A DNA stretch of 30,787 nucleotides. Origin: a virus. Below the pieces are notes generated by a model. It had not been told where the DNA came from. It did no database searches and worked only from the letters and a program-made list of their open reading frames with translations. A program made the position numbers and the translations under genes. Positions 279 to 30,025 of this stretch are shown here, one piece after another. Each line of letters begins with the position of its first letter. The stretch's first letter is position 1. The stretch covers positions 1-30,787 of the IMG/VR virus record IMGVR_UViG_3300030099_001048; one strand, written 5' to 3'.

Positions 279-630
279 TTTTTTGCGGTAAAATTTCTTG
301 TAATTCGTCAGTAATTTCGTGTGATAATTCTAACACTAAAGTTCTGTAACTATTAACTCGAAGTTTATTAGATTTTGTTTCAATAGCTGCTAAGAATCCG
401 GTTGATAATACAGTTATATTAATTGGTATAATACTTAACCAATCCTGCCAATTTCCAGAATCTTTATTATTACCATAATTATTATGATAATCAATAATCA
501 GATCTAAACTATCTATGTAATTTTTGTATCTAGCTTTAGTGGATAAGTCTTCTATAAAGGTTTTATGAGTGTTTATAAATCCTTCAATTAATGCTTCGTG
601 ATGTTTACTCGCGAATATCGGACTTTTCAT
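271..630 (-). CDS. Hypothetical early protein, 119 residues
   Basis: I do not recognise this family. The protein has a helical N-terminal half rich in His, Asn and Asp, a moderately hydrophobic stretch around residues 67-83 (IIPINITVLSTGFLAAI) that could be a membrane segment or buried helix, and a charged C-terminus. The gene lies between the NinG-like gene (22 bases upstream) and the sigma-like gene, whose start it overlaps by 8 bases. It is therefore near the end of the early operon. No catalytic motif is visible. Confidence 0.7.
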   Translation of the reverse strand: MKSPIFASKHHEALIEGFINTHKTFIEDLSTKARYKNYIDSLDLIIDYHNNYGNNKDSGNWQDWLSIIPINITVLSTGFLAAIETKSNKLRVNSYRTLVLELSHEITDELQEILPQKND

Positions 631-652
631 ATCGTAATGATATAAAAAAATT

Positions 653-1057
653 TCACATAATACCGAGTTCTTTTTTTAAGTTATTAACAATCGTTTTATA
701 ATACTTAATTTCTTGCTCGTATTCTACTCGACTCATTTTAACAGTAGTCTTTGCTAAATTATATAAATCTAGACTTGTGTTCTGCCCATAGTCTGCGTCA
801 AGTTTTTCGCCGAATTTCCACTGTTCGCCGTATCGAAAAACATTACAAGCGCTACATTGGACTTGACAATTCTGCTCGTTCCAACGCGTAGCTAGATATT
901 TCCTACTTTGAAAATGTCCGCATTGTAGCCTTCTAAAGTCATCTTGTTTTCCGCAAGTATAACAAGTCGTTATTCCTCCGTCGTAAGCGTTGCGTAGTCT
1001 AATATAAAGACTGAACCATTTATCGAGTTCTTTTTTTAGTTTACTTACGGACTTCAT
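653..1057 (-). CDS. ninG: NinG/Rap-like recombination endonuclease
   Basis: This 134-residue protein matches the lambda NinG (Rap) pattern. A basic helical N-terminus precedes the zinc-binding core: CYTCG near residues 32-36, then QCGHFQSRKY (about 45-54), a conserved Arg and Asn, and QCSACN (about 66-71) followed by YG. Lambda Rap is a structure-specific nuclease acting on D-loops and Holliday-like junctions in Red-mediated recombination. Here it sits downstream of the replication genes in the operon that also encodes a candidate annealing protein, so a role in resolving branched replication or recombination intermediates is likely. Its start overlaps the upstream gene by 17 bases. All zinc ligands appear intact. 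Confidence 0.87.
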   Translation of the reverse strand: MKSVSKLKKELDKWFSLYIRLRNAYDGGITTCYTCGKQDDFRRLQCGHFQSRKYLATRWNEQNCQVQCSACNVFRYGEQWKFGEKLDADYGQNTSLDLYNLAKTTVKMSRVEYEQEIKYYKTIVNNLKKELGIM

Positions 1058-1352
1058 ATCCGAGGTCTGTTCTCCATTTATCTTGCATAATTCCTTTTCT
1101 TATATAATATTTTTGACCTCTAAGTGTTGGATTTTCTTCTTGTAATTTTGCTCTAACTCGCTTAATACTTGGCGCTTTTGTCAATTTACCTTTTGCGTAT
1201 AATTGAAAAAAGGTTGTAACATTCATTTTAAATGGTACAATATTCATAGCTTCTATTTCTCGGAACCATATATGACAACATAATCTGTCGTCATTATCTC
1301 TTAATTCCGGTACGTCTGTTATTAAATCTTTGACTTTTTCTTTTGTGTTCAT
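1041..1352 (-). CDS. Hypothetical protein of the replication operon, 103 residues
   Basis: This basic helical protein begins at an ATG overlapping the upstream stop (ATGA, 1349-1352). It contains a central segment (FFQLYAKGKLTKAPSIKRVR, about residues 48-67) that looks like a helix-turn-helix or other nucleic-acid-binding helix pair. Similar proteins sit next to NinG and replication genes in flavophages as far as I recall, without an assigned function. A DNA-binding accessory role in replication is an inference from composition and neighbours only. Confidence 0.7.
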   Translation of the reverse strand: MNTKEKVKDLITDVPELRDNDDRLCCHIWFREIEAMNIVPFKMNVTTFFQLYAKGKLTKAPSIKRVRAKLQEENPTLRGQKYYIRKGIMQDKWRTDLGYEVRK

Positions 1353-1711
1353 TTTAATAATTTTTGTGATTGATAAAAAGGTACTTCTTTTGGCTCTTTG
1401 CCTAGTGTTCTAACTTGATATGTAGCGTCGTTAATTACTTGTTTATGTTTTATAATCCATTTATAAAATGTCCGGATATTTAAAAACGGCTCGAAGTCTC
1501 CGAACCTTACTCCTTGCCTAAACGCTTCTTGTATCTGTTCTATGGTCATTTTATTAAATCTATTCTCGATTAATAAATCTTCTGCTAATATCGACGTAAG
1601 CGACGCCATAGTCTTGCCGTCTGTTTTTAATCCGAGTTCGATATTTGTCCTTGCAACTAAATCGTATAATTTATGCTTTAAATCTTTTATGTCATAATCT
1701 ATTATACGCAT
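1349..1711 (-). CDS. Hypothetical replication-associated protein, 120 residues
   Basis: I place the start at ATG 1711-1709 (MRIIDYDIK), a 10-base overlap with the upstream gene. A longer frame begins at 1765 but would overlap that gene by 64 bases, and its extra N-terminus looks like a shifted-frame shadow. The product is helical, with a C-terminal half (about residues 55-100) containing RFGDFEPFLNIRTFYKWI, an aromatic-rich segment resembling phage replication accessory or helicase-loader-like proteins. No Walker motifs are present, so it is not a DnaC ATPase. Function unknown; replication is suggested by context. Confidence 0.65.
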   Translation of the reverse strand: MRIIDYDIKDLKHKLYDLVARTNIELGLKTDGKTMASLTSILAEDLLIENRFNKMTIEQIQEAFRQGVRFGDFEPFLNIRTFYKWIIKHKQVINDATYQVRTLGKEPKEVPFYQSQKLLK

Positions 1712-1890
1712 CGTACTGCTTCTTGTATTAATTGATAAAACTCTTCCGGATTCTCTTCTTGCCACCGCTCTAATTCTAGATCTGTTAATTCGCGACCTTT
1801 TTCGTCCTCTGCATAGCTTAAATATGCGTCGCAGTATTTAGGGTGGTCTTCTAGTCTAATATTCTCTATTGTATAGTTTTGTATTTTCAT
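1702..1890 (-). CDS. Small acidic conserved phage protein, 62 residues
   Basis: This is an acidic protein with the pattern DHPKYCDAYLSYAED followed by GRELTDLELERWQEE and an EFYQ segment. I recognise this layout from small phage proteins of unknown function in which a D-x-P-x-x-C-D-A-Y core is followed by a TxxELE helix. It starts four bases inside the upstream initiator gene (ATGA at 1887-1890) and is therefore likely coupled to it. Function unknown. Confidence 0.72.
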   Translation of the reverse strand: MKIQNYTIENIRLEDHPKYCDAYLSYAEDEKGRELTDLELERWQEENPEEFYQLIQEAVRCV

Positions 1891-2477: not shown

Positions 2478-2980
2478 TTTATTTCGAGTTTAAATAAATA
2501 GTCTCTGAGTATAAATTTAATAATTTCTATTTGATTGGAGAAATCTACATAAGACGTAGGAATAATAATCTGTATTTGTCCGGAAGTTACTAAGATTGAT
2601 ATTTCTGCCTTTTCGCTTAATTTAACTCCGTTACTAAATATGTATCTTTTCATTTCTCGCTTGTCCTTAAATACTTTTTTACTCGATATTTCTTTTTTAT
2701 ATTCTTTGTAAATCTTATTAAAAACAGATCTATACTTTTCCCAACGTATATTTGCTTCGTGATTAACTTCGTAATGATTAATTAATGTCCGGTCTCTATT
2801 TATACCTTCTGCGATAATTGTTTTATGTAATCCTTGTTCTTTTAAAGCTATCATACTTGCTACCATACGCGGGATTTGGTATTTGTGTTCTCGAGTCTTA
2901 TAAGATAATGAACCCTTACGCAACCCCATAACTTTTGTTGTGAGGTCGCATATGGCTTTAAATTCGTCTTTTTCTGTCAT
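2474..2980 (-). CDS. DnaA C-terminal-like DNA-binding protein
   Basis: I start this gene at ATG 2980 (MTEKDEFKAIC), two bases after the stop of the SSB-like gene. The frame remains open upstream to 3064, but that part overlaps the SSB-like gene. The product is 168 residues. Residues about 20-85 (GSLSYKTREHKYQIPRMVAS, IALKEQGLH, GINRDRTLINHY) resemble domain IV of DnaA: a basic start, then a helix-turn-helix ending in a DxTxI-H-like signature. The C-terminal half is not recognised. Such stand-alone DnaA-C-like proteins occur in flavophage replication modules. It may bind the phage or host origin, or compete with host DnaA; this is inference. Confidence 0.68.
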   Translation of the reverse strand: MTEKDEFKAICDLTTKVMGLRKGSLSYKTREHKYQIPRMVASMIALKEQGLHKTIIAEGINRDRTLINHYEVNHEANIRWEKYRSVFNKIYKEYKKEISSKKVFKDKREMKRYIFSNGVKLSEKAEISILVTSGQIQIIIPTSYVDFSNQIEIIKFILRDYLFKLEIK

Positions 2981-2982
2981 AA

Positions 2983-3315
2983 TTAAAATGGCATATCGGT
3001 ATCGTCTCCTGTTACAAATTTTGACGAATCTTTTTCTAATACTTTTGCGTCGAATATACTCCACCCGTTTATATTGTGATAAAACTTGCCGTTATATTCT
3101 CGACTGTTAATGTAACAAGCGACCTCAACATAGTCTCCTACATTTCTTTTTGCTAGACGACTAATTCTCTCTTCGCCCATAACTGTTATAACTACTTCCG
3201 GATAATGTAAATCTCCTTGGTCTAGTTTAAACATTTGTTTTTGTTTTTCGCCGTATTTTGTTTCAATAGTTTCTACGTCGTAAATTTGCACGATAGTTCC
3301 TGTAATGTGTATCAT
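2983..3315 (-). CDS. DUF3127-like OB-fold, SSB-like protein
   Basis: This 110-residue protein has the beta-rich layout of an OB fold (GTIVQIYDVETIETKYGEKQ, then alternating strands ending in WSIFDAKVLEK). It matches my memory of the Bacteroidota DUF3127 family. The last residues, DDTDMPF, closely resemble the acidic tip of bacterial SSB (DDDIPF), which recruits partner proteins such as PriA, RecO and exonucleases. It lies between a candidate annealing protein and a DnaA-C-like protein. Binding of single-stranded DNA during replication or recombination is the likely role. Confidence 0.78.
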   Translation of the reverse strand: MIHITGTIVQIYDVETIETKYGEKQKQMFKLDQGDLHYPEVVITVMGEERISRLAKRNVGDYVEVACYINSREYNGKFYHNINGWSIFDAKVLEKDSSKFVTGDDTDMPF

Positions 3316-3317
3316 TT

Positions 3318-3821
3318 TTATTTATTTAAGTTAGTATTAATTAGTTCTTCTAGTTTATCTTTTTGCGTTTTTGTTAGTTTATAACTTTGCATTCGCTTTT
3401 TAACTAGATCTGCTTTTCCTTCGCCGATTGCGATAATCATAGCTTGATATTTACTTCCGGATAACTTTTCTTTTTCCTTCGGTTTATCTTGTTCAATAGC
3501 ATTTTTAACCTCTTCCGCACTAGCTATACTATTATCTATGCCAATACCTAAGTTGCCTAATGCTCTTCCGTTCGCTGACGTTTCGCAGTTCTCTATAAAA
3601 GACGTCTTATTAACTCCGTGATTTGTTAGTGTTTCGAACGCAATACCTGTAGATACTGCATAACCGATATCGTTATGTATTGTTGATTTTATAACGCATC
3701 TATTTTCTGTTAATTCTAATATTTCAGACGTTAATGACCAGTCTGTATAATGTTTCCTAAAAAACTTTATGCGTTCATTAACCTCGACATACTCTTTTCC
3801 GTGAATGTTTATTGTTTTCAT
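3318..3821 (-). CDS. Candidate single-strand annealing (ERF/Rad52-like) protein
   Basis: The N-terminal domain of this 167-residue protein includes the segment ENCETSANGRALGNLGIG (about residues 77-94) followed by IASAEEV. I associate this ExxETSAxGRALxxLGxG pattern with ERF/Rad52-like annealing proteins of phages. A charged Glu/Lys linker follows (about 110-122), then a small C-terminal helical domain (YQAMIIAIGEGKADLVKKRM) that may bind DNA. The neighbours are SSB-like and NinG-like genes, which fits a recombination set. Its start overlaps the upstream stop by four bases. The family assignment is from pattern memory and not certain. Confidence 0.62.
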   Translation of the reverse strand: MKTINIHGKEYVEVNERIKFFRKHYTDWSLTSEILELTENRCVIKSTIHNDIGYAVSTGIAFETLTNHGVNKTSFIENCETSANGRALGNLGIGIDNSIASAEEVKNAIEQDKPKEKEKLSGSKYQAMIIAIGEGKADLVKKRMQSYKLTKTQKDKLEELINTNLNK

Positions 3822-4012: not shown

Positions 4013-4374
4013 TAGTATAATCCTATAATTAATGGTTTACCGGTCTCTTTGTAAATCTTATTGTACTCTTTTAGCTTTTTAGCTACGCGCTCGTTTTGTT
4101 CGTCTGCGTTCGGAAGCATAATATCGTACCAATATGAACCTACCGGCTCGACTTGATAATTGTAACATTCGTCTAAATATATCGACTTGCCCTTCATATA
4201 GTCTTCACAAGCTTGGTCAATCTCTTCTTGTGTTCCGTATATTCTGACGCTAATATCGTTGTCTTTTAGATCTGTATAATATCGTCCTGTAATGGCGTCT
4301 TGTTTAGACTCGCTCGAATATGCGCCATAAATCGAGTTACTTTTAAAGTGAAAGTCTTGTGCTAATAGTTCCAT
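4012..4374 (-). CDS. Hypothetical early protein, 120 residues
   Basis: An acidic, tyrosine-rich protein (pI clearly low, many Asp and Glu). The Tyr and acidic content recalls phage DNA-mimic or anti-restriction proteins, but no family signature is visible. It lies third from the early promoter, where anti-host functions often occur. Its start overlaps the upstream gene by 13 bases and its stop shares one base with the next start. Confidence 0.65.
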   Translation of the reverse strand: MELLAQDFHFKSNSIYGAYSSESKQDAITGRYYTDLKDNDISVRIYGTQEEIDQACEDYMKGKSIYLDECYNYQVEPVGSYWYDIMLPNADEQNERVAKKLKEYNKIYKETGKPLIIGLY

Positions 4375-4616: not shown

Positions 4617-4620
4617 ATCT

Positions 4621-6057: not shown

Positions 6058-6423
6058 TTAATCATAGAGCCAAAAAACATCTTGGTCTTTTTTGTTATCA
6101 ACGTCGCAATGTATAAAACTTTTACCGATTCCAATTCTTGTGATTCCGACGTTAATTAGTGATTTTATTATTAATGCTCTGTCTCTGCTTCCAATACATA
6201 AAATATCACAAGCTACGCCAAACTGATGACTTGAACCGACTCGACCGCCAACTTTTAAATTCCATTTTTTTGATCTGTAGCCGGACGTAATTTTAAATGG
6301 AACACCGGCTAAATGTCGCGCAAAATCTAATTGTGCAAGAAATTTTTTACACATTTTTTTACCGCTACCGACCTCATCTGGACTATCAAACTCGCTTAAT
6401 TTAAAATATTTTAATTCTTTCAT
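6058..6423 (-). CDS. M15-family peptidase endolysin
   Basis: This 121-residue protein has the Peptidase_M15_3 layout: ITSGYRS (45-51), the zinc site H66-x6-D73 in SSHQFGVACD, and the final FIHCDVD with H105 and D107. These are the expected zinc ligands and catalytic region of D-Ala-D-Ala or L-Ala-D-Glu type cell-wall peptidases. The small single-domain form is common for phages of Gram-negative hosts. It is flanked by two small membrane proteins. No signal peptide is visible, so it should need a holin to reach the cell wall. Confidence 0.9.
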   Translation of the reverse strand: MKELKYFKLSEFDSPDEVGSGKKMCKKFLAQLDFARHLAGVPFKITSGYRSKKWNLKVGGRVGSSHQFGVACDILCIGSRDRALIIKSLINVGITRIGIGKSFIHCDVDNKKDQDVFWLYD

Positions 6424-9567: not shown

Positions 9568-10250
9568 TATATTTTAATTAAATAATTATTTAAGTCGCTT
9601 ACCAATTGGTCGCTTGTACTCGTAAATATCGCTGCTTCGTGTAAAGTACCTTCATAAGGGTTTGTATCTATTCTGCGAACACCAAAAACATCTATTAAAA
9701 ATTGCCCCTCGTCAGTTACAGTATTACTAATTTGTGTGCCGTCGTGAAATACCTTAACTGTCATATCCGCGTCTCTTGTTACTATAATAGTTTTTTTATC
9801 TGACCAAGTTCCGGAAGGTAAGGCAAAGTTATGTGATGTTGCATTTCCGATTCTTACTCGCAGATTAGTTTCGGATGTAAGTCTTAAAAACTCTCCTGTG
9901 CTTGTATTATCCGCGAATAACGAACCCAATTCACTAACATCTACTCGCATACCGAAAGTAAATTGCGAAGACTCTGCGAACGTTATTTGCGTTCCTATTT
10001 CTAAATGCTGACCTCCTGTAAATGTAACAACACCATTCGAATCAATAGTAGGTGTTTTTTCTTCGTCTGCTTGACTAAAGTTATGGTCTCCGTTTATTTG
10101 GTCATTCCATTGTAATAATACGCTTCCTTCTTTAGTTATACCTGTGTTTTTTTCCCACCAAGCTAATGCGGTGTCTTCAGATCTAGGGCTCCAACCTCCT
10201 AAAGGTCGGATTGTAGGTAAACATAACGACATTCTTTGTGCTAAGGGCAT
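9567..10250 (-). CDS. Lectin-like (concanavalin A/LamG fold) virion protein
   Basis: A 227-residue, beta-rich protein. From about residue 65 the alternation of strands (VTFTGGQHLEIGTQITFAES, FTFGMRVDVS, EFLRLTSETNLRVRIG, and KKTIIVTRDADMTVKVFHDG) is typical of the concanavalin A-like LamG fold, often used for glycan binding. The N-terminus has a WxPRxxDxALAWWE segment. Lying between head genes, it may be a capsid decoration protein that binds surface polysaccharide, or a tail-side adhesin. Fold call from pattern; sugar specificity unknown. It is translationally coupled to the portal gene. Confidence 0.65.
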   Translation of the reverse strand: MPLAQRMSLCLPTIRPLGGWSPRSEDTALAWWEKNTGITKEGSVLLQWNDQINGDHNFSQADEEKTPTIDSNGVVTFTGGQHLEIGTQITFAESSQFTFGMRVDVSELGSLFADNTSTGEFLRLTSETNLRVRIGNATSHNFALPSGTWSDKKTIIVTRDADMTVKVFHDGTQISNTVTDEGQFLIDVFGVRRIDTNPYEGTLHEAAIFTSTSDQLVSDLNNYLIKI

Positions 10251-11772: not shown

Positions 11773-12702
11773 TTATTTATTCCAAACTACTTCGTCACCT
11801 AATCCTACTTGCGTACCTCCGCTATATTTAGCAACTATTCTTATGTTATCTGAGCCGTCTAAATTAGCCATATCCATAACATTAATTCTAGTTTGGTCAG
11901 AAAGTAGATCTGTTCCAAAGTATAAGTTCGAAGATTGTGCAGCTACGATTTGGTCATTTTGGAATCCGTTACAAACCGCTAGTTTATACCCTTCGAATAC
12001 AGGCTTGTAATCGCCATTCATTTGATAAGCGTTTACGTAACCTGCAGCTGAAATAGCTTGTATATATAAAGAGTAAGTCTTCGGACTAACGTATATATGT
12101 AAATCGTCTTTGTTTATTATGTTAGGAACGTTAGCTGCTAAACTTGTAGTCACTGCTTGTAATTCTGTTATAATATTACCTGCTCCTGCTCCCGAAATAA
12201 ACGTACCACCCGCCGAAATATTTTGAGTATTAGCTGCTACCGCGAACGCTCCTGTAGTTGCCGTTGTAAGTCCTTCAAACTCTCCTGCTGAAGCGCCTTG
12301 TCCTGACCATATATTATTTTCTACTTGTTCTGCTATAATTCCACCTAAGTAAGATATTACATAGTCTGTGAAACTAGCCGGAGGAGGTGCTCCCGCTCCT
12401 GCTCTCATTTGTAACGCCTCCCAAGAGTCTAATAATGTATCCTTACATAAATCCATATTTACTTGTAGATTCTTAGGTACTAATTGAGTCTCTGTTAAAG
12501 CTAATGTCCCTTGTGGGTCAAAGTTACAGTTCGCGTCTTTTACTACGTCGCTAGCTGCCATTTTTTGTAAGTTCGACTTAAACTTGATATTTTCAATCGA
12601 AGTTAAGTACTGTAAACTATTCGCTTCTTTAAGGGCAGCGGAAATGTAAAATCCGGCTGCTTTTCCTGTGAAGTTACTTGATGTTGAGAATGTTGTTGCC
12701 AT
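11773..12702 (-). CDS. Major capsid protein, HK97-fold type
   Basis: The 309-residue product follows a protease gene and a scaffold gene, the standard order for a major capsid gene. Features fit the HK97 fold: an N-terminal arm with helix (FYISAALKEANSLQYLTSIE), an E-loop region (KNLQVNMDLCKDTLLDSWEA), a spine-like helix (FTDYVISYLGGIIAEQVENN) with Gly/Ala-rich loops, and a late A-domain segment (DDLHIYVSPKTYSLYIQAIS). The ending (VGLGDEVVWNK) is typical of flavophage capsid proteins. Codon use is regular, and a terminator follows. Not a recognised close family by eye; assignment rests on context and layout. Confidence 0.82.
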   Translation of the reverse strand: MATTFSTSSNFTGKAAGFYISAALKEANSLQYLTSIENIKFKSNLQKMAASDVVKDANCNFDPQGTLALTETQLVPKNLQVNMDLCKDTLLDSWEALQMRAGAGAPPPASFTDYVISYLGGIIAEQVENNIWSGQGASAGEFEGLTTATTGAFAVAANTQNISAGGTFISGAGAGNIITELQAVTTSLAANVPNIINKDDLHIYVSPKTYSLYIQAISAAGYVNAYQMNGDYKPVFEGYKLAVCNGFQNDQIVAAQSSNLYFGTDLLSDQTRINVMDMANLDGSDNIRIVAKYSGGTQVGLGDEVVWNK

Positions 12703-17462: not shown

Positions 17463-20317
17463 TATGGTATTAATATTAGTTCGACTTTACTTAATTGTCT
17501 TGGTTTATAGTTTATTTTACTCACTCTAAAGACTCGATTTTTAATTCTTATTCTGTCATTAAATTTAAAATTCACAATATCTTGTGCAGTTAATAAAATA
17601 TTTATACTCATTTTTCTAGTGTTCGGGTTGTATAGTTCATAATAATAATTCTGATAATGTCTAGAATATAAGTTATCAACCGGAGGGACACCGATACCTA
17701 TTAATTGACACGGACCAAAGTTTAAGTCTCTATCTGCAAAAGTAGACGGATAATTATTAACGTGTGAAAATATACAATAATGGTCTTGATTTACTCCGCT
17801 AGAACCATTTTGAAATGGTATATAGTAAGTAACTCCGGACGGCATAGGTGTACCATTTCCGGCAGGATTAAAAGTGCTTCCTGTGTCTCCTGTTACGTCG
17901 TATAAGATTCGAGGTTTATTTGCCATACCTTCGAATTGTGTTGCGTCTGCATTAGCTTTATAAATCTGCGGACCAATCCAATCCGGTATCGACGCGAAAT
18001 GTGGTTTTACTATTGTAGCTGCAAAAGGTTTTGCTTCGACTTTTGTTTCGCCTTTTACCTGTGTATAATCCGGAACAGTATATTCTAGACTTCCGTATAA
18101 ATATCCGTTTGTAGCTGACTTATATACACCGAAAGGATAATCGCTGTCTTCTGTATATTGAAATGTAGTCTTAGATTTTAAGTCCATAGGTTTTAATTTA
18201 AACTCCTTAGAGTCAACCTTATCCGTCCAATCGTACTCTCTTATACTCTTATTACCTTCGCCAAAAATATCGTCATACGGCTCTATAATTAGATTTCTGG
18301 AATCATTAGGGTCTTGTAAGGTTACAAGATTAAACATAGTAATAAGTCCCTTAAAGAAGTCCCATTGCTTTAATTTACCGCGTTCTGTATTCATTAGAGT
18401 TCCTCCGATTATAGTCGTACCCGTAACAGTACCTTCTATTCTACTTGACGATTGTAATTCTGCTCCGTCCGAACCGGCGTTTGTAATAACCACTTGTACT
18501 CGTATTTGTGAGTTTATGGCTATTGTATTTGATGTGGGAATACTAACTACTGCCGTCCTTATTCCTTGTGGTGGAATACTAATAGATGTAAAAGCTAAAA
18601 TAGTTGGCGTTCCAGTTTGTACCCACATAACTAATGCGTTTTGTGTATTTAAAAAAGAACTTCCGGTTCTAAGGTTTTTTAACACAATAGTTGCCGTTAA
18701 ATTATAGGTCATATTACCTGCCGGTGCTGTAAATACTCCGGTTGTAGTATTATAACCTGCGCTTAAAAATGTATTATTATCTGACAAGACCGCAGTACTC
18801 CCACCTCCCGTTCCGAACACTTGACCACTATCGCTCGAGTTATCGACTCTTCCTAAGACGCCACGCTCTGCCCAATTTATTTCTTTACCCCAATTATAAT
18901 CAACAAATAAACGCTCGAAATATGCGCTATCAAAAAAATTAGATGTAAAGGTAAATCCGTGTCTTTGAAATATCTTCTGTACTAAATATTTGACTTTTAT
19001 AAAAGGTCTAAACATCGTTTGTAGACGCGCTATATAAGGTTGATTAAGGTTTGCCGTATTTCCGCTTGATATATATATCGGGTCTACATTAGTTAAAAAT
19101 TCTCCAATCTGTCCGTTCCAATTACAATTCGGATATTTTAGTACGTTAGTAGTCGTGTCTCCTAAATTACCTGCAAAACTATTTGCTCCTATTGGATTAA
19201 TTAACGGAAGCTGACCATTCCAAGAGTTAAATATATTGCCTTTATTATAGACGTGTGATAATTCGTCTAAGTCTATATGTGCCATAGTTTCGGCTTTCAT
19301 AAGAGACGCTAAAGCGACGGAATCGCTATACAAATTAACATTATAAGAGTATTCGTTATCTTTATATGTTATGTCTATTAGTCGCATATAGCCACTAAAT
19401 ATAACGTGTCCGTCTTCCTTATATACCGCTCTAGTTTGTCGATATACGTTAAACACAGGGACGTTTAAAGAGTTTCTAGTGACGTCAAAAAGGTTCTCGA
19501 ATATTTCGTTATTATGTTTTGTCGCAGGTAGCTTAAACGCTTTACTGTAGCTTTGTTGTTTTTCTGAAGCATTTTGAAAAGTATCGACGCTTAATGTCAA
19601 AGGTATTTCCTCTTCGTTGTATAGATCTGCTATTTTTTGTCCGTCTTCCTTACCTATTACAGTCGCCTTTCTACAAATAATTTCATTTATAAATAATATT
19701 TTACTTCCTATGTTCGGATTATTAGTACTGGCATAAGTTAAGTTAAAAACTTCTGTCGTATTTTGAGCCGTAAAATATACAGGCGTAGTCATACCGGCTT
19801 GTGTTGTATCTATTAATTGAAATCCGGCTGAACCGCCACCACAGGGAGGTATTCCTGTCAACATACCGGCGTTATTAACTCCGAAAAACATAAGGTTAAA
19901 ATTCGTATTATGTGGTTGTGGTACGGCTACATCTAAAACGACTTCGTAAGTTTGACCTATTGTTAATCCTGTGAGTCTTTGATAACAACCGGAAACGTTT
20001 ATTCCGTTTACACCACCGCCATAGAACCCTAATAAAAGTTGTATAGGAGTCGTAACTAAATTTATTTGTGTAAAAGGAAATTGAAAAACAACGCCTCCGT
20101 TTGATGTACTAGAATAAAAAGACCAATTATTATTTGCCGGACTAGAATTTAAAGCAACCTCCGGTACACCCGGAAAAGGTAATGTAGTTACTTGACTACC
20201 AGGTGTTATACCGGTTTGAAATATATTAGCGTCAGCTAATTCGTTTAAACTAACAGGACCAGTAGTAGCGGTATAACCATTATAGTATTGCGGATATAAA
20301 GTTAATTGTATTGACAT
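17462..20317 (-). CDS. Large tail-tip/baseplate protein, 951 residues
   Basis: The largest gene in the genome. Residues about 1-210 form a beta-rich module with GLTIGQTYEVVLDVAVP, similar to carbohydrate-binding jelly-roll domains. About 230-330 includes LTLSVDTFQNASEKQQSYSK AFKLP (split here), which I recall from tail proteins of Bacteroidota phages and which opens a hub-like region. The last ~80 residues (LLTAQDIVNFKFNDRIRIKN, FRVSKINYKP) look like a phage tail-hub ending. It likely builds the tail tip and contacts the cell surface. It overlaps both neighbours by one base. Confidence 0.7.
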   Translation of the reverse strand: MSIQLTLYPQYYNGYTATTGPVSLNELADANIFQTGITPGSQVTTLPFPGVPEVALNSSPANNNWSFYSSTSNGGVVFQFPFTQINLVTTPIQLLLGFYGGGVNGINVSGCYQRLTGLTIGQTYEVVLDVAVPQPHNTNFNLMFFGVNNAGMLTGIPPCGGGSAGFQLIDTTQAGMTTPVYFTAQNTTEVFNLTYASTNNPNIGSKILFINEIICRKATVIGKEDGQKIADLYNEEEIPLTLSVDTFQNASEKQQSYSKAFKLPATKHNNEIFENLFDVTRNSLNVPVFNVYRQTRAVYKEDGHVIFSGYMRLIDITYKDNEYSYNVNLYSDSVALASLMKAETMAHIDLDELSHVYNKGNIFNSWNGQLPLINPIGANSFAGNLGDTTTNVLKYPNCNWNGQIGEFLTNVDPIYISSGNTANLNQPYIARLQTMFRPFIKVKYLVQKIFQRHGFTFTSNFFDSAYFERLFVDYNWGKEINWAERGVLGRVDNSSDSGQVFGTGGGSTAVLSDNNTFLSAGYNTTTGVFTAPAGNMTYNLTATIVLKNLRTGSSFLNTQNALVMWVQTGTPTILAFTSISIPPQGIRTAVVSIPTSNTIAINSQIRVQVVITNAGSDGAELQSSSRIEGTVTGTTIIGGTLMNTERGKLKQWDFFKGLITMFNLVTLQDPNDSRNLIIEPYDDIFGEGNKSIREYDWTDKVDSKEFKLKPMDLKSKTTFQYTEDSDYPFGVYKSATNGYLYGSLEYTVPDYTQVKGETKVEAKPFAATIVKPHFASIPDWIGPQIYKANADATQFEGMANKPRILYDVTGDTGSTFNPAGNGTPMPSGVTYYIPFQNGSSGVNQDHYCIFSHVNNYPSTFADRDLNFGPCQLIGIGVPPVDNLYSRHYQNYYYELYNPNTRKMSINILLTAQDIVNFKFNDRIRIKNRVFRVSKINYKPRQLSKVELILIP

Positions 20318-21817: not shown

Positions 21818-22336
21818 TTATGTTTTTACTTTAGTCCAACCTTTAATTATATCCTCCTTTAGTGCGTTCATCATATTTAATCCGAATGCGTCCATAGCGA
21901 TTCCTAAAGGTTTTTGGAAGAAACTCAAAGACTTTAGTCCGTCTCTTTTAATTTTACGACCAATAAGATATGCTAGAGACATATTAGATATGTAACGTCC
22001 GGTCTTTGGGTCTCTTCCTTTTATTCTTTTTTTACTAATCCATTTACTTAATATATCCGGTGGAGGTTGTTTACCTCTAAACTTGTACGGACTTTCAACA
22101 TTACGCCCGTCATACGTTCTATAATTTTGTATTTGTTTATTTCCGGAAACTCCTTTGTCTACATACCTACCATAATCTGCCATACGAAACTCGACTTCAA
22201 ATCCTTCTGCCGTTTTTTGTACTCGAAACTTAATCGACTTAGCTAGATCTGTTCCTTTGACGTTTGCCTTCGCTTCTTTTCGTACATATAAAGCAAAGCT
22301 TCTAAGGTACTTTTGTATGGCGGTCATTTCTGCCAT
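21818..22336 (-). CDS. HK97 gp10-like tail-completion/neck protein
   Basis: I choose ATG 22336-22334, which shares its A with the preceding TAA (TAATG). The frame runs open to 22369, but the extra residues are Cys/Ile-rich and unlike the rest. The 172-residue product has a basic helical N-terminus, strands (SIKFRVQKTAEGFEVEFRMA) and the core DYGRYVDKGVSG, a pattern of HK97 gp10-like proteins (Y-x-x-F/Y-V-x-x-G). These proteins act in the head-tail joint. A short basic segment (KWISKKRIKGRDPKTGRYIS) follows. Confidence 0.76.
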   Translation of the reverse strand: MAEMTAIQKYLRSFALYVRKEAKANVKGTDLAKSIKFRVQKTAEGFEVEFRMADYGRYVDKGVSGNKQIQNYRTYDGRNVESPYKFRGKQPPPDILSKWISKKRIKGRDPKTGRYISNMSLAYLIGRKIKRDGLKSLSFFQKPLGIAMDAFGLNMMNALKEDIIKGWTKVKT

Positions 22337-22797: not shown

Positions 22798-22799
22798 AA

Positions 22800-23220: not shown

Positions 23221-23754
23221 TTATTGTACAATCGGTCTGTTGTCTACCGGTATTTCACAAGTTTGGAAATCGTACTGCGCTATTACGGGCAAACTAAATA
23301 CCCACCCCGTTACTTCTTGGTCGAACCTTTCTTGAAACGGCTCAATATTAAATTCTCCTTCTGCAAATATTACAGGTTCGTTAATATCTAATGGGTCTAC
23401 TTCGCTTTGCCAACCGGAATGTCTTAACATACCTATTATATCTGTACAGATTTGTAAACATTCACTAAGTACCTCTTGATTATTACTAAGGTTTGTAGCT
23501 GATATATAATTACTAGATTTCCAATTACTCTTTTCGCTTACTAAGTCCATAATAAATATCTGGAAATTATAAGTTAATGTACTTGGTCCCGTCTGTACGT
23601 TTACAGGGTTTATATGCATAAGCGGATATTTAGTATTCTTGTTCAGATCTATTTCCCATATATCGCCACTCGTAGTAGTCTGTATAATATTATGCGCGTT
23701 TCCTAGCTTTTTAAGTGTGTCAATAATATTATTATAAGTCTTATTGTGTATCAT
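23221..23754 (-). CDS. Tail terminator-like protein candidate, 177 residues
   Basis: The sequence shows an N-terminal helix (YNNIIDTLKKLGNAHNIIQT), then strands (YPLMHINPVNVQTGPSTLTY NFQIFIMDL, split here), a helix (EVLSECLQICTDIIGMLR) and an ending with VTGWVFSLPV. This alpha-beta layout, with W-x-F near the C-terminus, fits minor tail or tail-terminator proteins in Bacteroidota phages. Its start overlaps the frameshifted chaperone frame by 14 bases. The family name is uncertain. Confidence 0.6.
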   Translation of the reverse strand: MIHNKTYNNIIDTLKKLGNAHNIIQTTTSGDIWEIDLNKNTKYPLMHINPVNVQTGPSTLTYNFQIFIMDLVSEKSNWKSSNYISATNLSNNQEVLSECLQICTDIIGMLRHSGWQSEVDPLDINEPVIFAEGEFNIEPFQERFDQEVTGWVFSLPVIAQYDFQTCEIPVDNRPIVQ

Positions 23755-24541: not shown

Positions 24542-24558
24542 AATTTTGTTAATTTAGT

Positions 24559-25872
24559 TTATTGTACAAAATACTTGCCATAATTAGAATCTATTTCGTA
24601 ATACATTCTCATCATAATTGCGTCCGCGTAATCCGGCGAACGTCCAAGTATGTCTTTTATTTGCTCTTTCGGTACGATCTGTAATTTATTATCCTTGTCA
24701 GCGTCCTTAGTCCTTATTTGTTCTAGTTCTTCAAGTATAAAATTCTTTATATTTATGTCCGGACAAGTAATACCTATTTGAGCAGTATTAATATATTCGG
24801 CTAATTTATAAAAACATTGCGTTTTAAGGTTCTGATAATTTTCTTTTTTTAATGGTCTCGAATTATTCACAAATCCTTGACATCTTAAAAAGTCTTTCGC
24901 ACCACCACCGACTCCGTCTTCGTCGATTATTATATTTCGTAATGGTACGCCGTTAGTCTGTTGTATTTGCTTTACTTCGCTCACAACGTCGTTTATAGCG
25001 CTTTTAAGCAACGTTCTTATTTTTTTAATATGTAGACCTTCCCAATACATAATAACTGTTCTATCGTCTCCAAAACGCGCTACATCGCAAGATATATATT
25101 TATCGCCTTCCTTACCTTTTTGCGTAAACATATTAATTATGCTATTGTAATCAATAAGAGAATCCTTAGTCGCGTCATACTCCCAATTTCCGTGTAACAG
25201 TCTTTGTTTACTAAGTTCGTCTAGAGTTTGTAATTGTGTCTTGTAGTATTTAGATATATAATAATTATCATCTACTAATGATTGTATAAACTTTCTATGC
25301 GGTTTTTGTGTACCTTCTTTTGAAGGTCTGTAATATTGTGTATATACCCAATTCTTAGCCGGATTACAAGTCATTAACATTTTAGGTATTAATCCGTATT
25401 GGTCAAGCTTATAACGTAACCTCGACGAAGTAATGTTTTTAGCTTTTTCTGTGATTTGATTGCATTCGTCTATAAAAGCACCGGTTAATTCTAAAGACCC
25501 TAGATTGTCAAAGTTTCGGTCTGACGGATACAAGAATAAATCCTTAAGCATTATTTCTGACTTATTATAAAACTTAATTATATTACTACTTGCGTTATAA
25601 TTATAATGCTTATTATTCTTTATGCCCCACTTTTCGCATACCTCGAAAAAGGTATTAAGAGTAGTCTTTTTTAATGCGTCTAATTTAGACCGACCCATAA
25701 GGTATCTAGTGCCAGGATATTGTAAGCACATAAGAATAAGCCAAGAGCAACCGACCCAAGACTTTCCTCCACCCGCTGCTCCTCCGAATAATACCTCTGT
25801 TGTTGTTTCGTCTAATAAATACTCTATTGCTTTTCCCTGTGTCTCTGTGAAATCGGTATTAATGTCTAGCAC
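24559..25872 (-). CDS. terL: Terminase large subunit
   Basis: The 437-residue product has an N-terminal ATPase with Walker A GGAAGGGKS (30-38), Walker B GAFIDE with D135 and E136, and a coupling-motif-like MLMTCNPAKNWVY. A C-terminal RNase H-like nuclease follows, with SCDVARFGDD and IIIDEDGVGGGAKDF as acidic metal-binding motifs. Length is normal for the family. Together with TerS it cuts and pumps DNA into the prohead. Start overlaps terS by 14 bases. Nothing indicates the packaging type directly, but the circularly permuted contig favours headful packaging. Confidence 0.95.
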   Translation of the reverse strand: MLDINTDFTETQGKAIEYLLDETTTEVLFGGAAGGGKSWVGCSWLILMCLQYPGTRYLMGRSKLDALKKTTLNTFFEVCEKWGIKNNKHYNYNASSNIIKFYNKSEIMLKDLFLYPSDRNFDNLGSLELTGAFIDECNQITEKAKNITSSRLRYKLDQYGLIPKMLMTCNPAKNWVYTQYYRPSKEGTQKPHRKFIQSLVDDNYYISKYYKTQLQTLDELSKQRLLHGNWEYDATKDSLIDYNSIINMFTQKGKEGDKYISCDVARFGDDRTVIMYWEGLHIKKIRTLLKSAINDVVSEVKQIQQTNGVPLRNIIIDEDGVGGGAKDFLRCQGFVNNSRPLKKENYQNLKTQCFYKLAEYINTAQIGITCPDINIKNFILEELEQIRTKDADKDNKLQIVPKEQIKDILGRSPDYADAIMMRMYYEIDSNYGKYFVQ

Positions 25873-26206: not shown

Positions 26207-26843
26207 TATATTCTTTTTTTATTCGTATCATCTTTTTAGTTTGCCAAGTCTTTTTATATTCAACATTCTCGAATAATTTACTAAAGCCTGTTATGTGTTT
26301 TAACTTCAATACCTCTTCCGGTTCCATACCTAAGTGATTACATATTTCGTCTTCCGTCCAACCATTTTCTAGCATATCGAATACCATACTACTCATTCCG
26401 CTTATAGAGTGCGAACCTCTTGCCCTATTATGTCTTACTGTAGCTGCCATACGTTCGTTCTTATCTTTTTCTATTACTACTATTGGCAGAAGTCCTTTAT
26501 TACGCTCCTGTATATCTTTATTTTGTAGACAAGTAAAGTATCTATGAAAGCCGTCTACTATTACATATTTTTTAATGTCTTCGTCATATATCGTTACAAT
26601 AGGTTGTGTATATCCGTCGTGTTTAATCGACTTATATAACAAACCCATTTCGACCTTAGCTACACTATTCGGATTATAGTCATTAGGTTGTACGTCTTTT
26701 ATTGGTACCCACTTAACTAAATCAATCGGTTGATTAACTTCCGATATTTCTTTATGTAAGTATTCTCGTATATCGTTTAATAGTTTAGATCTGTCTTTAC
26801 AATTTTTTATAGCTTCTTTAATTGCTTTTTTTATGTTCTCCAT
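26193..26843 (-). CDS. IbrB-like ParB/sulfiredoxin-fold protein
   Basis: The 216-residue product has a helical N-terminus, then the ParB/Srx core: WVPIKDVQPNDYNPNSVAKV, a Q-P-I-V strand, and YVIVDGFHRYFTC with the DGFHR motif that replaces GxRR in this subfamily. A helical region with TVRHNRARGSHSI and a helix-turn-helix (WTEDEICNHLGMEPEEVLKL) follow. Proteins like this are encoded beside PAPS-reductase/DUF3440 proteins (the IbrA/IbrB pair). ParB-fold domains can bind NTP or cleave DNA. The pair is kept together here with a 26-base overlap. Exact function unknown. Confidence 0.8.
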   Translation of the reverse strand: MENIKKAIKEAIKNCKDRSKLLNDIREYLHKEISEVNQPIDLVKWVPIKDVQPNDYNPNSVAKVEMGLLYKSIKHDGYTQPIVTIYDEDIKKYVIVDGFHRYFTCLQNKDIQERNKGLLPIVVIEKDKNERMAATVRHNRARGSHSISGMSSMVFDMLENGWTEDEICNHLGMEPEEVLKLKHITGFSKLFENVEYKKTWQTKKMIRIKKEYNEQN

Positions 26844-28050
26844 TTTTAAAATAGTTTAATACTTCTAATTTTTGTTCTAATGTCAAATACTTAGTCGATA
26901 ACGTCATTGGTTTTATCCAACGACTCTTAACCTTATCCGTTCCGTTTGGATTCATATGATAGCGTCTATATGCGTCAGCGTGTGAACTCATAGTCCAATT
27001 CTTTAGCTTAGTAAAGTCAAAATCGCTACTTAATATTGTATCTATTATTTTACGCCAAAAGTCTCTATGTATTAATCCGTCGTGATATATCTTATGTGAT
27101 TCGATTTTCTTATCAAGTAATTCTCTATAATTTTCGTCCGGAACAAGATACTTTGCTAAATGTAAAGCGTATTCGCGCCAGTCTTCGAACATATACGGAA
27201 GTTCTCGCGGACAAGTAAAGGAGTTCCCTTTTATATGTTTTATTGTGTTTGCTCCTTCTATTTTCTTACTTACTTTATTCCAAGTCTTTGGCTCTATTTC
27301 TTGCACAAGTAAAAGGTTTTTTAATGCCGTTTCGTGATGTAAATTAGAGACGCGCATATCCATAACCTTAACTCCTTGTTTATATAATTCGTTGTAAAGA
27401 TTATTGTACTTACAATCCTTATCATTTATGTATTTCCATACGTCCGTATAACTCCAATCAAAAATAGGATAAAAAGTATATTGACTTATTTTCTTATTAA
27501 GTATCTTGCCCCAAGTAATATCTTTATATGTAACCGCAGACGTTAAAGCTATATATCTTGTCGGACTTTCTTCTGTTCTTACTCCGGCTAAATAACAAGT
27601 ATTTTCTTTAAAATCTACTTTGGCAATCTTTTCGAATAGTTCGTGAAATCTATCTGTACCATAATTATTTTCTGTAATAGCTATTTTATCTTGTTCGTGT
27701 ATCCAATCTGCTTTTTCTTTTACGTCCCAACAATAATGATATCGACTATTTGTAGACGCATTATTTGTGATAACCATAGGTATTTGATACCAATAAGGTT
27801 TTACTTCTTTACGATACATAACTTCCTTAACGTAATCTATTGTACTTTGCCACTCACATTCTTGGTCTAAAAACATAACCGGTAGTGGTAGTTTGTCTTT
27901 TTCTCTTGCTACTTCTAACGCTAATTCCAAAACTACTGTACTATCTTTTCCACCACTAAAGCTGACAACTACTTGGTCAAAGTCTTCGAATAATCGACTT
28001 ATTCTTTTTTTAGCTGCTTCATATACGTTCGTTTTACTATATATTTTCAT
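26818..28050 (-). CDS. PAPS-reductase-family protein with DUF3440-like C-terminus (IbrA-like)
   Basis: The 410-residue product has the PP-loop SFSGGKDS (30-37), which binds and activates ATP or related adenylates, then the acidic DQECEW strand and GVRTEES. The C-terminal half (from about residue 230, MDMRVSNLHHETALKNLLLV, and many aromatics) matches the DUF3440 layout. Relatives include DndC, which activates sulfur for DNA phosphorothioation, and IbrA. A classical assimilatory role is unlikely because the partner enzymes are missing. I infer a nucleic-acid or protein modification chemistry. Its start overlaps the GNAT gene by 14 bases. Confidence 0.85.
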   Translation of the reverse strand: MKIYSKTNVYEAAKKRISRLFEDFDQVVVSFSGGKDSTVVLELALEVAREKDKLPLPVMFLDQECEWQSTIDYVKEVMYRKEVKPYWYQIPMVITNNASTNSRYHYCWDVKEKADWIHEQDKIAITENNYGTDRFHELFEKIAKVDFKENTCYLAGVRTEESPTRYIALTSAVTYKDITWGKILNKKISQYTFYPIFDWSYTDVWKYINDKDCKYNNLYNELYKQGVKVMDMRVSNLHHETALKNLLLVQEIEPKTWNKVSKKIEGANTIKHIKGNSFTCPRELPYMFEDWREYALHLAKYLVPDENYRELLDKKIESHKIYHDGLIHRDFWRKIIDTILSSDFDFTKLKNWTMSSHADAYRRYHMNPNGTDKVKSRWIKPMTLSTKYLTLEQKLEVLNYFKNGEHKKSN

Positions 28051-28402
28051 ACGTCATTTGTGTAATTCCGTTCTTATATGTTTTTTTAATATTAAATCCG
28101 TATCGTTTTAAAGTGTTTACACTCATTTTAGTACAGAACGCCCTCATTTTTTTATATCCTAAGTCTTCCGCAATAATCATTCTTTTTTTAAATAGATAAT
28201 CATATATTCCTTTTCCTCTATGTTCTTTAAGAACGTATGCACATTTAAATAATGCCGTACTTCCTAGCTTTTTAATACCTGCCATACCTACTATTTTATT
28301 GTCTATTTTATAAGTTATGACATCTAATTTAACCGGAACTAATATTCCTTCTTTTTTTGCCTTATCTAAAAAGTCGTTTGGTATTTGGTTTATATCAATC
28401 AT
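28037..28402 (-). CDS. GNAT-fold acyltransferase-like protein
   Basis: The 121-residue product has the GNAT order: strands VITYKIDNKIVGMAGIKK, then the acyl-CoA loop EHRGKGIYDYLFKKRM (60-75), and the late segment MSVNTLKRYGF. The usual second Gly of RxxGxG/A is Tyr67, so cofactor binding may be altered. The ATG overlaps the methyltransferase stop by four bases (ATGA). GNAT proteins usually acetylate small molecules or proteins; phage Mu Mom is a GNAT-fold enzyme that modifies adenine in DNA. Given its neighbours, DNA or protein acylation is possible; not shown by sequence alone. Confidence 0.75.
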   Translation of the reverse strand: MIDINQIPNDFLDKAKKEGILVPVKLDVITYKIDNKIVGMAGIKKLGSTALFKCAYVLKEHRGKGIYDYLFKKRMIIAEDLGYKKMRAFCTKMSVNTLKRYGFNIKKTYKNGITQMTYENI

Positions 28403-29001
28403 TGTATTTTTTTTAATGCTTTACTTAGTCGCGCTTTACTTAATTCATTTCCTACTACGTCAAATCCGTTCTTATGTAATACTTTTAAATAATAACCGAT
28501 TCCAATAAATAATTCTAAACAACTTTTATATTGACCTTTAAAAACTTCACATACTTTTTGTAGACTTTTTATTCCGTTTAATCCGTTAAGTATTGACCAA
28601 TCTTTTATCTCTGCATTATTAAGCGTTACAACTATTATACAATTTTCTAGCCAATTACTGCCAGATCTATATTTCTTCTTAATATATTGTATATCTTTTA
28701 CGTTTTTCTTAGCTTTAAATTTAGACATCATACTTGATGCTTCGCGTTTCCCGTAAACTATAAAAGCATAATTATTGACATTATTAGTTATAAGATTCAC
28801 AACTATATTTTCTAACTCTTCTTGCGTTATTTGGTCGCTCATATTTTCGTCGTTATTCTTATTATTCATAGTCTGCCAATAATTTAGATTTCCGTTGCCC
28901 CAAGGAGGGTCTGTATAACAAAAGTCTAATCCGTTCGGATAATGTTTTTTAATGTTTTGTTCGACTCGCGGGTCGTTAATGTTTCCGTTTGTAAATTTCA
29001 T
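28399..29001 (-). CDS. DPPW-type DNA methyltransferase-like protein
   Basis: I start at ATG 29001-28999 (MKFTNGNIND), five bases after the ParB-like stop; a longer frame runs into that gene. The 200-residue protein has the catalytic motif DPPW (about 31-34), typical of N6-adenine or N4-cytosine methyltransferases, and the SAM-binding motif I near its end (LELFIGIGYYLKVL, then GFDVVGNE). The order, catalytic motif first, is that of the beta class. The middle region is short, leaving little room for a separate target recognition domain. Its partner may be the ParB-like protein upstream. Confidence 0.82.
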   Translation of the reverse strand: MKFTNGNINDPRVEQNIKKHYPNGLDFCYTDPPWGNGNLNYWQTMNNKNNDENMSDQITQEELENIVVNLITNNVNNYAFIVYGKREASSMMSKFKAKKNVKDIQYIKKKYRSGSNWLENCIIVVTLNNAEIKDWSILNGLNGIKSLQKVCEVFKGQYKSCLELFIGIGYYLKVLHKNGFDVVGNELSKARLSKALKKIQ

Positions 29002-29006
29002 ATTAA

Positions 29007-29537
29007 TTATTTTATTTGTATTTCGAACTCGTGTCCACACTCCGGACATATTACATCTACGTTTTTAGATTCTCTAATCATTTCTACTGCTAACCTTTTA
29101 GCTTCCTCTTCTATTTCTTTTTGTGTTATTTCAGAATATTTAGTGTCCGGATTAAGACTTGGCTCAAAATCTATATTGTCGGGTTGCCATACGTCCATTC
29201 CCCATTCTCCAAGCTCGTTCTCGTTCCATTCGTTTCCTATAATATTCCAATCCCATTCACCGAATGATAAGTTATCTTTAATAATAAACTCTTGTTTTTC
29301 CTCTTCTGATAGCGTTTTAACGACTTTTACCGGTACTTCTGTTAGTCCGGCTTCCTTAGACGCTTCGAAACGCATATTTCCTCCTAAAATAATATTATTT
29401 TCGTCGACAACTATTGGTCGTATTTCTAACATTTTAGGAAATTCTTTTATGCTTTGTACTAATTTTTTAAACTTTTCTTCCTTAATTATTCTCGGATTCT
29501 GTTTATTTGATTGTATTTGGCTTGTTTTTAGTTTCAT
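29007..29537 (-). CDS. ParB-like nuclease-fold protein with C-terminal zinc ribbon
   Basis: Residues 1-80 form the ParB/Srx core: MKLKTSQIQSNKQNPR, a helix KFKKLVQSIKEFP, RPIVVDENN and the ILGGNMRFEASKEAG motif (G-x-x-R). Then comes a Trp-rich acidic region (SFGEWDWNIIGNEW) and a final zinc ribbon with CPECGHEF. ParB-domain proteins of this design commonly accompany DNA methyltransferases in phages. Whether this one cleaves DNA or guides modification is unknown. A TCTATTATATA element abuts its start. Confidence 0.83.
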   Translation of the reverse strand: MKLKTSQIQSNKQNPRIIKEEKFKKLVQSIKEFPKMLEIRPIVVDENNIILGGNMRFEASKEAGLTEVPVKVVKTLSEEEKQEFIIKDNLSFGEWDWNIIGNEWNENELGEWGMDVWQPDNIDFEPSLNPDTKYSEITQKEIEEEAKRLAVEMIRESKNVDVICPECGHEFEIQIK

Positions 29538-29550
29538 ATTATATAATAGA
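29538..29550 (-). promoter_or_regulatory. TCTATTATATA element abutting the start at 29537
   Basis: On the minus strand TCTATTATATA, AT and then ATG. It sits in a 25-base gap upstream of the modification island and shares core and spacing with those at 24529 and 11024. Six bases separate the TATTAT hexamer's end from the A of ATG, so a promoter here would make a leaderless mRNA. Confidence 0.45.
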
Positions 29551-29562
29551 TTTTATTTATGT

Positions 29563-29808
29563 TTATTTAAAGTCTTCATTAATTCCGCGTTCGCCGGTTA
29601 CTATTTCTTTAGCTTCTGACCACGCTCTGCTTCGATTTAACGAATCTTCTGTTCTTATTAGACTTGGCATACCTTCGGCGGGTTTAGAGTCCATATAAAG
29701 TCCGCATTCGCATTTAGCTTCTTTAGTAACCCATTTATTATCTACAAGAATAATAGTCGCTTTACTAATATACTTTTGTTGACCACATTCGCATTTATAT
29801 AGTGCCAT
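29563..29808 (-). CDS. Small zinc-ribbon protein, 81 residues
   Basis: Two paired-Cys motifs, CECG near residues 6-9 and CECG near 33-36, separated by a beta hairpin-like segment (ISKATIILVDNKWVTKEAK), make a zinc ribbon. The C-terminal part (PSLIRTEDSLNRSRAWSEAK) is helical and polar. It likely binds nucleic acid or another protein. It lies between the DUF3310 gene (14-base overlap) and the ParB-like gene. Not a named family to me. Confidence 0.7.
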   Translation of the reverse strand: MALYKCECGQQKYISKATIILVDNKWVTKEAKCECGLYMDSKPAEGMPSLIRTEDSLNRSRAWSEAKEIVTGERGINEDFK

Positions 29809-30025
29809 TCTTTAGTTTATCATATTTATTATGTAATTCCTCTAATTCAAAATGTAGATGATTAATCGCTTTTCTAATGTCCTCTATTCCGCCGTCATCG
29901 TGTTTGTTTTTCGATCTGAGTAAATAGGTTACAGCAGTACCTACATTGTAGCTTAAATCAAAATTAGAGACTACGTCTTTTGCCATATATCCGTTTTTAC
30001 CTTTGTAATATTCTGGTATATCCAT
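29795..30025 (-). CDS. DUF3310-family protein
   Basis: The 76-residue product matches DUF3310: an opening YYKG, the helix FDLSYNVGTAVTYLLRSKNK, and DIRKAINHLHFELEELHNKY. This small helical domain is widespread in phages; some are annotated as nucleotide kinase-like, but its activity is not established as far as I know. It starts two bases after the Cys-rich protein gene. Confidence 0.85.
   Translation of the reverse strand: MDIPEYYKGKNGYMAKDVVSNFDLSYNVGTAVTYLLRSKNKHDDGGIEDIRKAINHLHFELEELHNKYDKLKNGTI

What the first reader, a model, noticed from the sequence alone, without database searches (positions are those of the whole stretch)
500..29918. GATC survives only inside CAGATC
Reading the whole window by eye I found 18 GATC sites; about 90-100 would be expected at this base composition (rough estimate). 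All 18 are within CAGATC on one strand or the other. Thirteen are CAGATCTA or its complement (starting near 499, 1777, 2725, 3405, 4267, 10178, 11905, 13533, 19622, 22244, 23644, 26786, 28662), and five are CAGATCA or CAGATCG (near 6271, 8820, 16253, 24675, 29912). The kept sites occur in both orientations and in different codon registers (GAT CTA, AGA TCT, GAT CTG), while Asp-Pro pairs I checked are written GAC CC. This points to selection on DNA, for instance a host GATC restriction system that cannot cut CAGATC, or a phage or host modification that protects CAGATC.
Basis: partly seen in the sequence, partly recalled or inferred. Interest (0 to 1): 0.82.

Follow-up and report, generated by a model that had tools for sequence, protein, structure and literature searches.

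The report
Phage GATC kept only in CAGATC
A marine bacterial virus has erased the word GATC from its genome everywhere except inside CAGATC, and it has accumulated that exempt word (mostly as CAGATCTA) at even intervals, which suggests a protected, useful DNA mark rather than mere escape from a host cutting enzyme.

Summary
The window has 18 GATC, all in CAGATC (either strand), 13 of them CAGATCTA. Shuffles that keep every protein and its codon usage give 52 ± 6 GATC, 46.6 outside CAGATC (observed 0) and 5.5 inside it (observed 18). CAGATCTA is 13 against 0.8. The window is a complete circular genome of about 30.69 kb of a Bacteroidota (flavophage-like) phage. A sister genome, about 5.5% divergent, obeys the same rule although sites have come and gone: 8 shared, 6 private, none outside CAGATC where about 27 one-step creations were expected neutrally. 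Half of the related phages have no GATC at all, so purging by restriction is a familiar pressure here. The exemption is peculiar to this lineage. Exemption alone does not explain the data: CAGATCTA is spelled with rare codons and the sites are spaced too evenly (P about 1e-4). I favour a host GATC restriction pressure plus a protective modification or recognition of CAGATC that the phage benefits from carrying at intervals. The molecular agent is not identified.

The parts
499..506 (+). CAGATCTA; sister has AAGGTCTA (site lost or gained)
1777..1784 (-). CAGATCTA (Thr-Asp-Leu, ACA GAT CTA); shared with sister
2725..2732 (+). CAGATCTA; sister has CAGATCGA at the same place
3405..3412 (-). CAGATCTA; absent in sister (AAATCT)
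4267..4274 (-). CAGATCTA; shared with sister
6270..6277 (-). CAGATCAA
8819..8826 (-). CAGATCGA
10178..10185 (+). CAGATCTA
11905..11912 (-). CAGATCTA
13533..13540 (-). CAGATCTA; shared with sister
16253..16260 (+). CAGATCGT; shared with sister
19622..19629 (-). CAGATCTA; absent in sister, which instead has CAGATC at the places aligned with 19106 and 20353
22244..22251 (-). CAGATCTA; shared with sister
23644..23651 (+). CAGATCTA; absent in sister (TAAATCTA)
24674..24681 (-). CAGATCGT in the terminase gene; shared with sister; all distant relatives have other words here (CAAATAAT, CAGATAAT and others)
26786..26793 (-). CAGATCTA; sister has CAGATCGA at the same place
28662..28669 (+). CAGATCTA, inside the methyltransferase-like gene; region not present in sister
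29911..29918 (-). CAGATCGA; shared with sister
28399..29049 (-). P0001, putative DNA amino-methyltransferase (DPPW then FIGIG, beta-type order); unique to this genome among the sequences searched
   Evidence: AlphaFold models uninformative
28037..28402 (-). GNAT acetyltransferase gene adjacent to P0001, also missing from the sister
29007..29537 (-). ParB-like protein, related to the ParB part of phage ParB-methyltransferase fusions (phrog_498); conserved in the sister (86%)
1..101 (+). direct terminal repeat, identical to 30687-30787 apart from one base: the record is a closed circle of about 30,686 bp

Best explanation
Two selective forces act on the DNA of this phage lineage. First (well supported), GATC is purged, most likely because hosts in its range cut GATC. 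Second (inferred), CAGATC is exempt because it is covered by a sequence-specific mark or binder, most likely a base modification whose preferred target is CAGATC followed by T or G and then A. It may be made by a host enzyme, or by a phage gene shared by the two sister genomes. Carrying the mark at least once every 1-3 kb benefits the phage, so CAGATCTA words are gained beyond neutrality and sit at even intervals in both orientations. Shown: purge, exemption, enrichment, even spacing, turnover under constraint. Inferred: restriction as the cause of the purge, modification as the cause of exemption, and a benefit per stretch of DNA.
For: Codon shuffles: 0 against 46.6 outside CAGATC, 18 against 5.5 inside, CAGATCTA 13 against 0.8; CAGATC not followed by TA is at the neutral level, 5 against about 4.6. 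Synonymous spelling: of 10 Asp-Leu pairs after a codon ending in CA, 7 are GAT CTA although TTA is the main Leu codon (476 of 766), and 3 of the 8 CTG codons in the genome lie in GATCTG, two of them in TAGATCTG. Sister genome (L082 + L171), 22.3 kb aligned at 5.5% divergence: 8 shared and 6 private GATC, all in CAGATC; about 27 neutral one-step creations of other GATC expected, 0 seen; two sites switch between CAGATCTA and CAGATCGA. Even spacing: window CV 0.42, P = 7.5e-5 on the circle and lowest of 281 6-mers of similar number; sister CV 0.31, P = 1.1e-4. Other restriction-like words are also at zero in both genomes: CATG 0/61, GGCC 0/17.5, ACCGT 0/37. GATC is zero in 34 of 68 terminase relatives; elsewhere only 11% of GATC lie in CAGATC, 346 of 3065.
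Against: No modification data and no known host. No gene shared by both sister genomes was recognised as a DNA-modifying enzyme apart from widely shared ParB-like and PAPS-reductase-like genes, which relatives without the rule also carry. The modification cassettes at 28051-29009 differ between the sisters. Individual sites are not conserved more than background (4 of 12 window sites in the aligned part are lost, and two more change flank). Evenness was noticed after the fact, and the two genomes share 8 sites.
Confidence: 0.42

Rival explanations
1. Tolerance only: a host GATC restriction enzyme is blind to CAGATC (or a methyltransferase protects it), and the 18 sites are simply what mutation leaves.
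For: Strict zero outside CAGATC; turnover without positional conservation; non-TA CAGATC sites at the neutral level.
Against: CAGATC is 3.3 times and CAGATCTA 16 times above codon shuffles, rare codons are used to spell it, and the spacing is too even.
Confidence: 0.2
2. The phage methyltransferase P0001 (28399-29049), perhaps with the adjacent GNAT protein, marks CAGATC and so protects it from a GATC enzyme.
For: P0001 has DPPW and FIGIG in beta-type order and aligns with phage N6/N4 methylases; it is peculiar to this lineage.
Against: The sister genome obeys the same rule without P0001 or the GNAT gene; a different methyltransferase-like ORF (SEPSW, CCGYG) occupies the slot and is barely similar.
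Confidence: 0.13
3. CAGATCTA is a distributed recognition signal unrelated to modification: a Chi-like stop for a host helicase-nuclease, a loading site for a ParB-like protein, or a strand-repair site; GATC elsewhere is purged independently by restriction.
For: Enrichment, both orientations, even spacing and turnover resemble uptake, Chi or loading sites; a conserved ParB-like gene is present.
Against: Relatives with the same ParB-like protein show no comparable octamer. CAGATCTA is not strikingly dense in 395 Bacteroidota genomes (at most about 70 per Mb against 422 per Mb here), although the true host is unknown.
Confidence: 0.2
4. Artefact of composition, codon usage or assembly.
For: None found.
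Against: Codon-preserving and dinucleotide models exclude it; a near-identical contig and a 5.5% divergent sister in other records show the same rule.
Confidence: 0.01

Closest known systems
Type II (and DpnI-type IIM) recognition-site avoidance in phage genomes (PMC6286503)
   Same: Strong under-representation of a 4-bp palindrome, GATC; that paper reports GATC under-represented in all 46 phages whose hosts encode the corresponding enzyme.
   Different: Here avoidance is absolute but for one flanking context, and that context is enriched about 3-fold (16-fold for the octamer); I found no such case in the passages read.
Phage methyltransferases and base hypermodification that shield restriction sites (known class, e.g. 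7-deazaguanine phages)
   Same: Would give context-specific protection; the slot 28051-29009 holds methyltransferase-like genes in both sister genomes.
   Different: No TGT/DpdA homologue in the window; the two slots hold different genes; no modification measured.
DNA uptake sequences and Chi sites (bacterial distributed signals; own knowledge)
   Same: Over-represented 8-mer, both strands, inside genes, evenly spaced, positions turning over.
   Different: In a 30.7-kb phage, and not known to be enriched in a host; the signal contains a word otherwise forbidden in the genome.

Membership tests
Restriction-site avoidance (GATC, Type II/IIM) | Word far below codon- and Markov-based expectation | tested here: met
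   18 against 52; outside CAGATC 0 against 46.6
Restriction-site avoidance (GATC, Type II/IIM) | Avoidance applies whatever the flanks | tested here: not met
   CAGATC is enriched, 18 against 5.5
Restriction-site avoidance (GATC, Type II/IIM) | A host restriction enzyme of that specificity | not testable with these tools
   host unknown; 34 of 68 related contigs lack GATC altogether, which is indirect
Distributed DNA signal (uptake sequence, Chi-like) | Over-representation beyond codon usage | tested here: met
Distributed DNA signal (uptake sequence, Chi-like) | More even spacing than random | tested here: met
   (post hoc; sister shares 8 sites)
Distributed DNA signal (uptake sequence, Chi-like) | Enriched in the host genome | tested here: inconclusive
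   none of 395 Bacteroidota genomes approaches the phage density, but the host is not known
Beta-class N6/N4 DNA methyltransferase (P0001) | Motif IV (DPPY/W) before motif I (FxGxG) | tested here: met
Beta-class N6/N4 DNA methyltransferase (P0001) | Match to the Pfam/NCBIfam DNA methylase models or to the fold | tested here: inconclusive
   no DNA-methylase model matched; both structure models are of low confidence
P0001 as the cause of the CAGATC rule | Present in every genome that obeys the rule | tested here: not met
   sister genome lacks it
7-deazaguanine DNA modification | TGT/DpdA transglycosylase in the genome | tested here: not met
   one search finds none in the window; the Pfam TGT model also misses the phrog-recognised DpdA-like gene of G402, so it is not exhaustive

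The most novel reading that the evidence does not exclude
The phage carries a self-mark: CAGATCK(A) sites are actively accumulated and kept at intervals of about 1-3 kb because a modification or binder at them protects or licenses the surrounding DNA in cis, so that the mark works per stretch of DNA and not per restriction site. A second lineage in the same phage group (G402) shows an analogous accumulation of GGATCC, 7- to 20-fold by the model used.
Probability: 0.25. Interest if true: 0.85.

Novelty: new variant of a known kind. Interest (0 to 1): 0.66.

Why it matters
Restriction-site avoidance in phages is well known, but an absolute purge with a single exempt context that is itself over-accumulated and regularly spaced is not something I could find described. 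If the exempt word is a modification target, genome text alone would reveal the specificity of an unknown enzyme. If the mark acts over a stretch of DNA rather than at single sites, it points to a way of telling self from non-self that differs from ordinary restriction-modification. The window/sister pair and the swapped gene cassette at 28051-29009 make this directly testable.

Tried and rejected
P0001 as sole cause: rejected, because the sister lacks it. Repeat or insertion origin of the sites: rejected from the alignment with the sister, where the differences at the sites are point substitutions. Host-wide signal: no Bacteroidota genome in a sample of 395 has a comparable density (the tool's reversed control contains CTAG and is a poor control). 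Own octamer in each relative, as a ParB-loading model would predict: not seen in about 90 contigs except G402 with GGATCC. 7-deazaguanine as the general reason for accumulated GATC words: G402 has QueD, QueE, FolE, QueC and a DpdA-like gene and 29 GGATCC, but the contig with the nearest DpdA-like relative (G406) has only 4 GGATCC in 31.8 kb, so the link is not supported. Structure prediction of P0001 failed twice (mean pLDDT 40 and 38). Searches for P0001 relatives in viral contigs, phages, plasmids and 395 Bacteroidota genomes gave nothing convincing. Literature: no paper holds CAGATC together with 'methylation motif'.

Full report
Observation. I permuted synonymous codons within amino-acid classes over 46 genes covering 95% of the sequence, 1000 times. 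GATC averages 52.0 (minimum 36), outside CAGATC 46.6 (minimum 32, observed 0), inside CAGATC 5.5 (maximum 14, observed 18), and CAGATCTA 0.8 (maximum 5, observed 13). So there are two separate facts: GATC is purged, and the exempt context is enriched. CAGATC not followed by TA is at its neutral level (5 against about 4.6). By following base, CAGATCT is 13 against 1.6, CAGATCG 4 against 0.7, CAGATCA 1 against 1.0 and CAGATCC 0 against 2.1.

Spelling shows active preference. Asp-Leu after a codon ending in CA is written GAT CTA in 7 of 10 cases, although GAT is 247 of 563 Asp codons and CTA 116 of 766 Leu codons. Leu CTG is used 8 times in the genome, and 3 of these are in GATCTG, two of them in TAGATCTG, the complement of the octamer.

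What the genome is. All recognised genes lie on the minus strand: terminase, portal, S78-like protease, tail genes, NinG, replication initiation, a PAPS-reductase/DUF3440 protein next to a ParB-like protein, and a second ParB-like protein. The terminase is 54% identical to Flavobacterium phage 11b and 52% to Cellulophaga phage phi10:1, so the host is probably a marine member of the Bacteroidota (inference). The record ends in a direct repeat of 101 bp with one mismatch, and a related contig runs across the joint, so it is a complete circle of about 30,686 bp.

Relatives. Among 68 terminase relatives of at least 5 kb, 34 have no GATC at all and 38 have at most a tenth of the expected number, so GATC purging is common in this group. 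In about 330 loci outside the lineage, 346 of 3065 GATC (11%; the four of L171, a sister contig, are counted in both figures) lie in CAGATC, and no independent locus with a useful number of sites obeys the rule.

The sister genome. Contigs L082 and L171, from one sample, cover window 12220-28051 and 29009-30787 plus 1-4817 at about 94% identity, and their ends meet inside one gene. Their 12 GATC are all in CAGATC. In 22.3 kb of alignment, 8 sites are shared, 4 are private to the window and 2 to the sister. About 745 places in the window are one substitution from a GATC outside CAGATC; at the observed divergence about 13.6 should have been created in the sister and as many the other way, yet none is seen. 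Two sites read CAGATCTA in one genome and CAGATCGA in the other, so the exempt core is CAGATC, with T or G and then A favoured.

Spacing. The 18 sites are more even than random on the circle (gaps 680-3369 bp, CV 0.42, P = 7.5e-5), and CAGATC has the lowest spacing P among 281 6-mers with 15-21 copies. The sister's spacing is also even (CV 0.31, P = 1.1e-4). In the window the non-TA sites fall mostly into the two long gaps left by the octamers. All 18 sites lie in different genes (P = 0.003). These tests were made after the fact, and the two genomes share 8 sites, so I treat evenness as suggestive to strong, not as proof.

The methyltransferase. P0001 (28399-29049) has DPPW and, downstream, FIGIG, in the order of beta-class amino-methyltransferases, and it aligns along its length with phage N6/N4 methylases (19-26% identity). 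No DNA-methylase family model matched it, and structure models were uninformative. It lies between a ParB-like gene and a GNAT gene. In the sister this stretch (window 28051-29009) is replaced by other genes, including a methyltransferase-like ORF with SEPSW and CCGYG motifs whose best match with P0001 has E = 6. Since both genomes obey the rule, P0001 alone is not the cause. A shared specificity factor, such as the ParB-like protein that is conserved between the two (86%), or a host enzyme, remains possible.

A possible parallel. Another phage of the group, G402, has 29 GGATCC in 31.6 kb (22 in 19.7 kb against 1.1-3.0 expected), and in its first 19.7 kb 11 GGATCC are read as GGA TCC while only 19 TCC codons were counted. 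It encodes QueD, QueE, FolE, QueC and a DpdA-like transglycosylase, a 7-deazaguanine DNA-modification pathway. GATC as a whole is not avoided there. The contig with the nearest relative of that DpdA-like protein does not share the GGATCC excess, so I do not claim a causal link. It shows only that strong accumulation of one GATC-containing word has arisen at least twice.

Judgement. Purge by restriction plus an exempt context is well supported as selection on DNA. Exemption alone fails quantitatively. The simplest addition is that the exempt word is itself useful, and the even spacing suggests usefulness per stretch of DNA. Which molecule reads it is unknown.

Noticed in passing
window, whole: CATG (0 against 61), GGCC (0 against 17.5), ACCGT/ACGGT (0 against 37) and CTATAG (0 against 12.4) are absent from the window and from the sister contigs, as if several further restriction specificities act on the lineage.
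   Followed up: partly
window, whole: CCGG is 103 against 43 and TCCGGA 26 against 5.7 by codon shuffle, although nearly all relatives lack CCGG; CpG-containing words are generally high and TpG/CpA-containing words low.
   Followed up: partly
window 1-101 and 30687-30787: Direct terminal repeat with one mismatch: the contig is a closed circular genome.
   Followed up: yes
window 28051-29009; L082 end and L171 end: Swapped cassette between sister genomes: GNAT plus P0001 methyltransferase in the window; an unclassified 203-aa ORF and a methyltransferase-like ORF with SEPSW/CCGYG motifs in the sister.
   Followed up: partly
L336-L337 (G402), L120: 29 GGATCC in 31.6 kb, with 7-deazaguanine genes (QueD, QueE, FolE, QueC, DpdA-like) and a ParB-like gene beside them.
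   Followed up: partly
window 26193-28050: PAPS-reductase/DUF3440 gene next to a ParB-like gene, resembling the IbrA/IbrB pair (from memory), just upstream of the terminase genes.
   Followed up: no
L192-L250 (several): Many phages encode the same ParB-like domain in ORFs that also carry N6 DNA-methylase motifs, whereas in the window ParB (29007-29537) and P0001 are separate overlapping genes.
   Followed up: no
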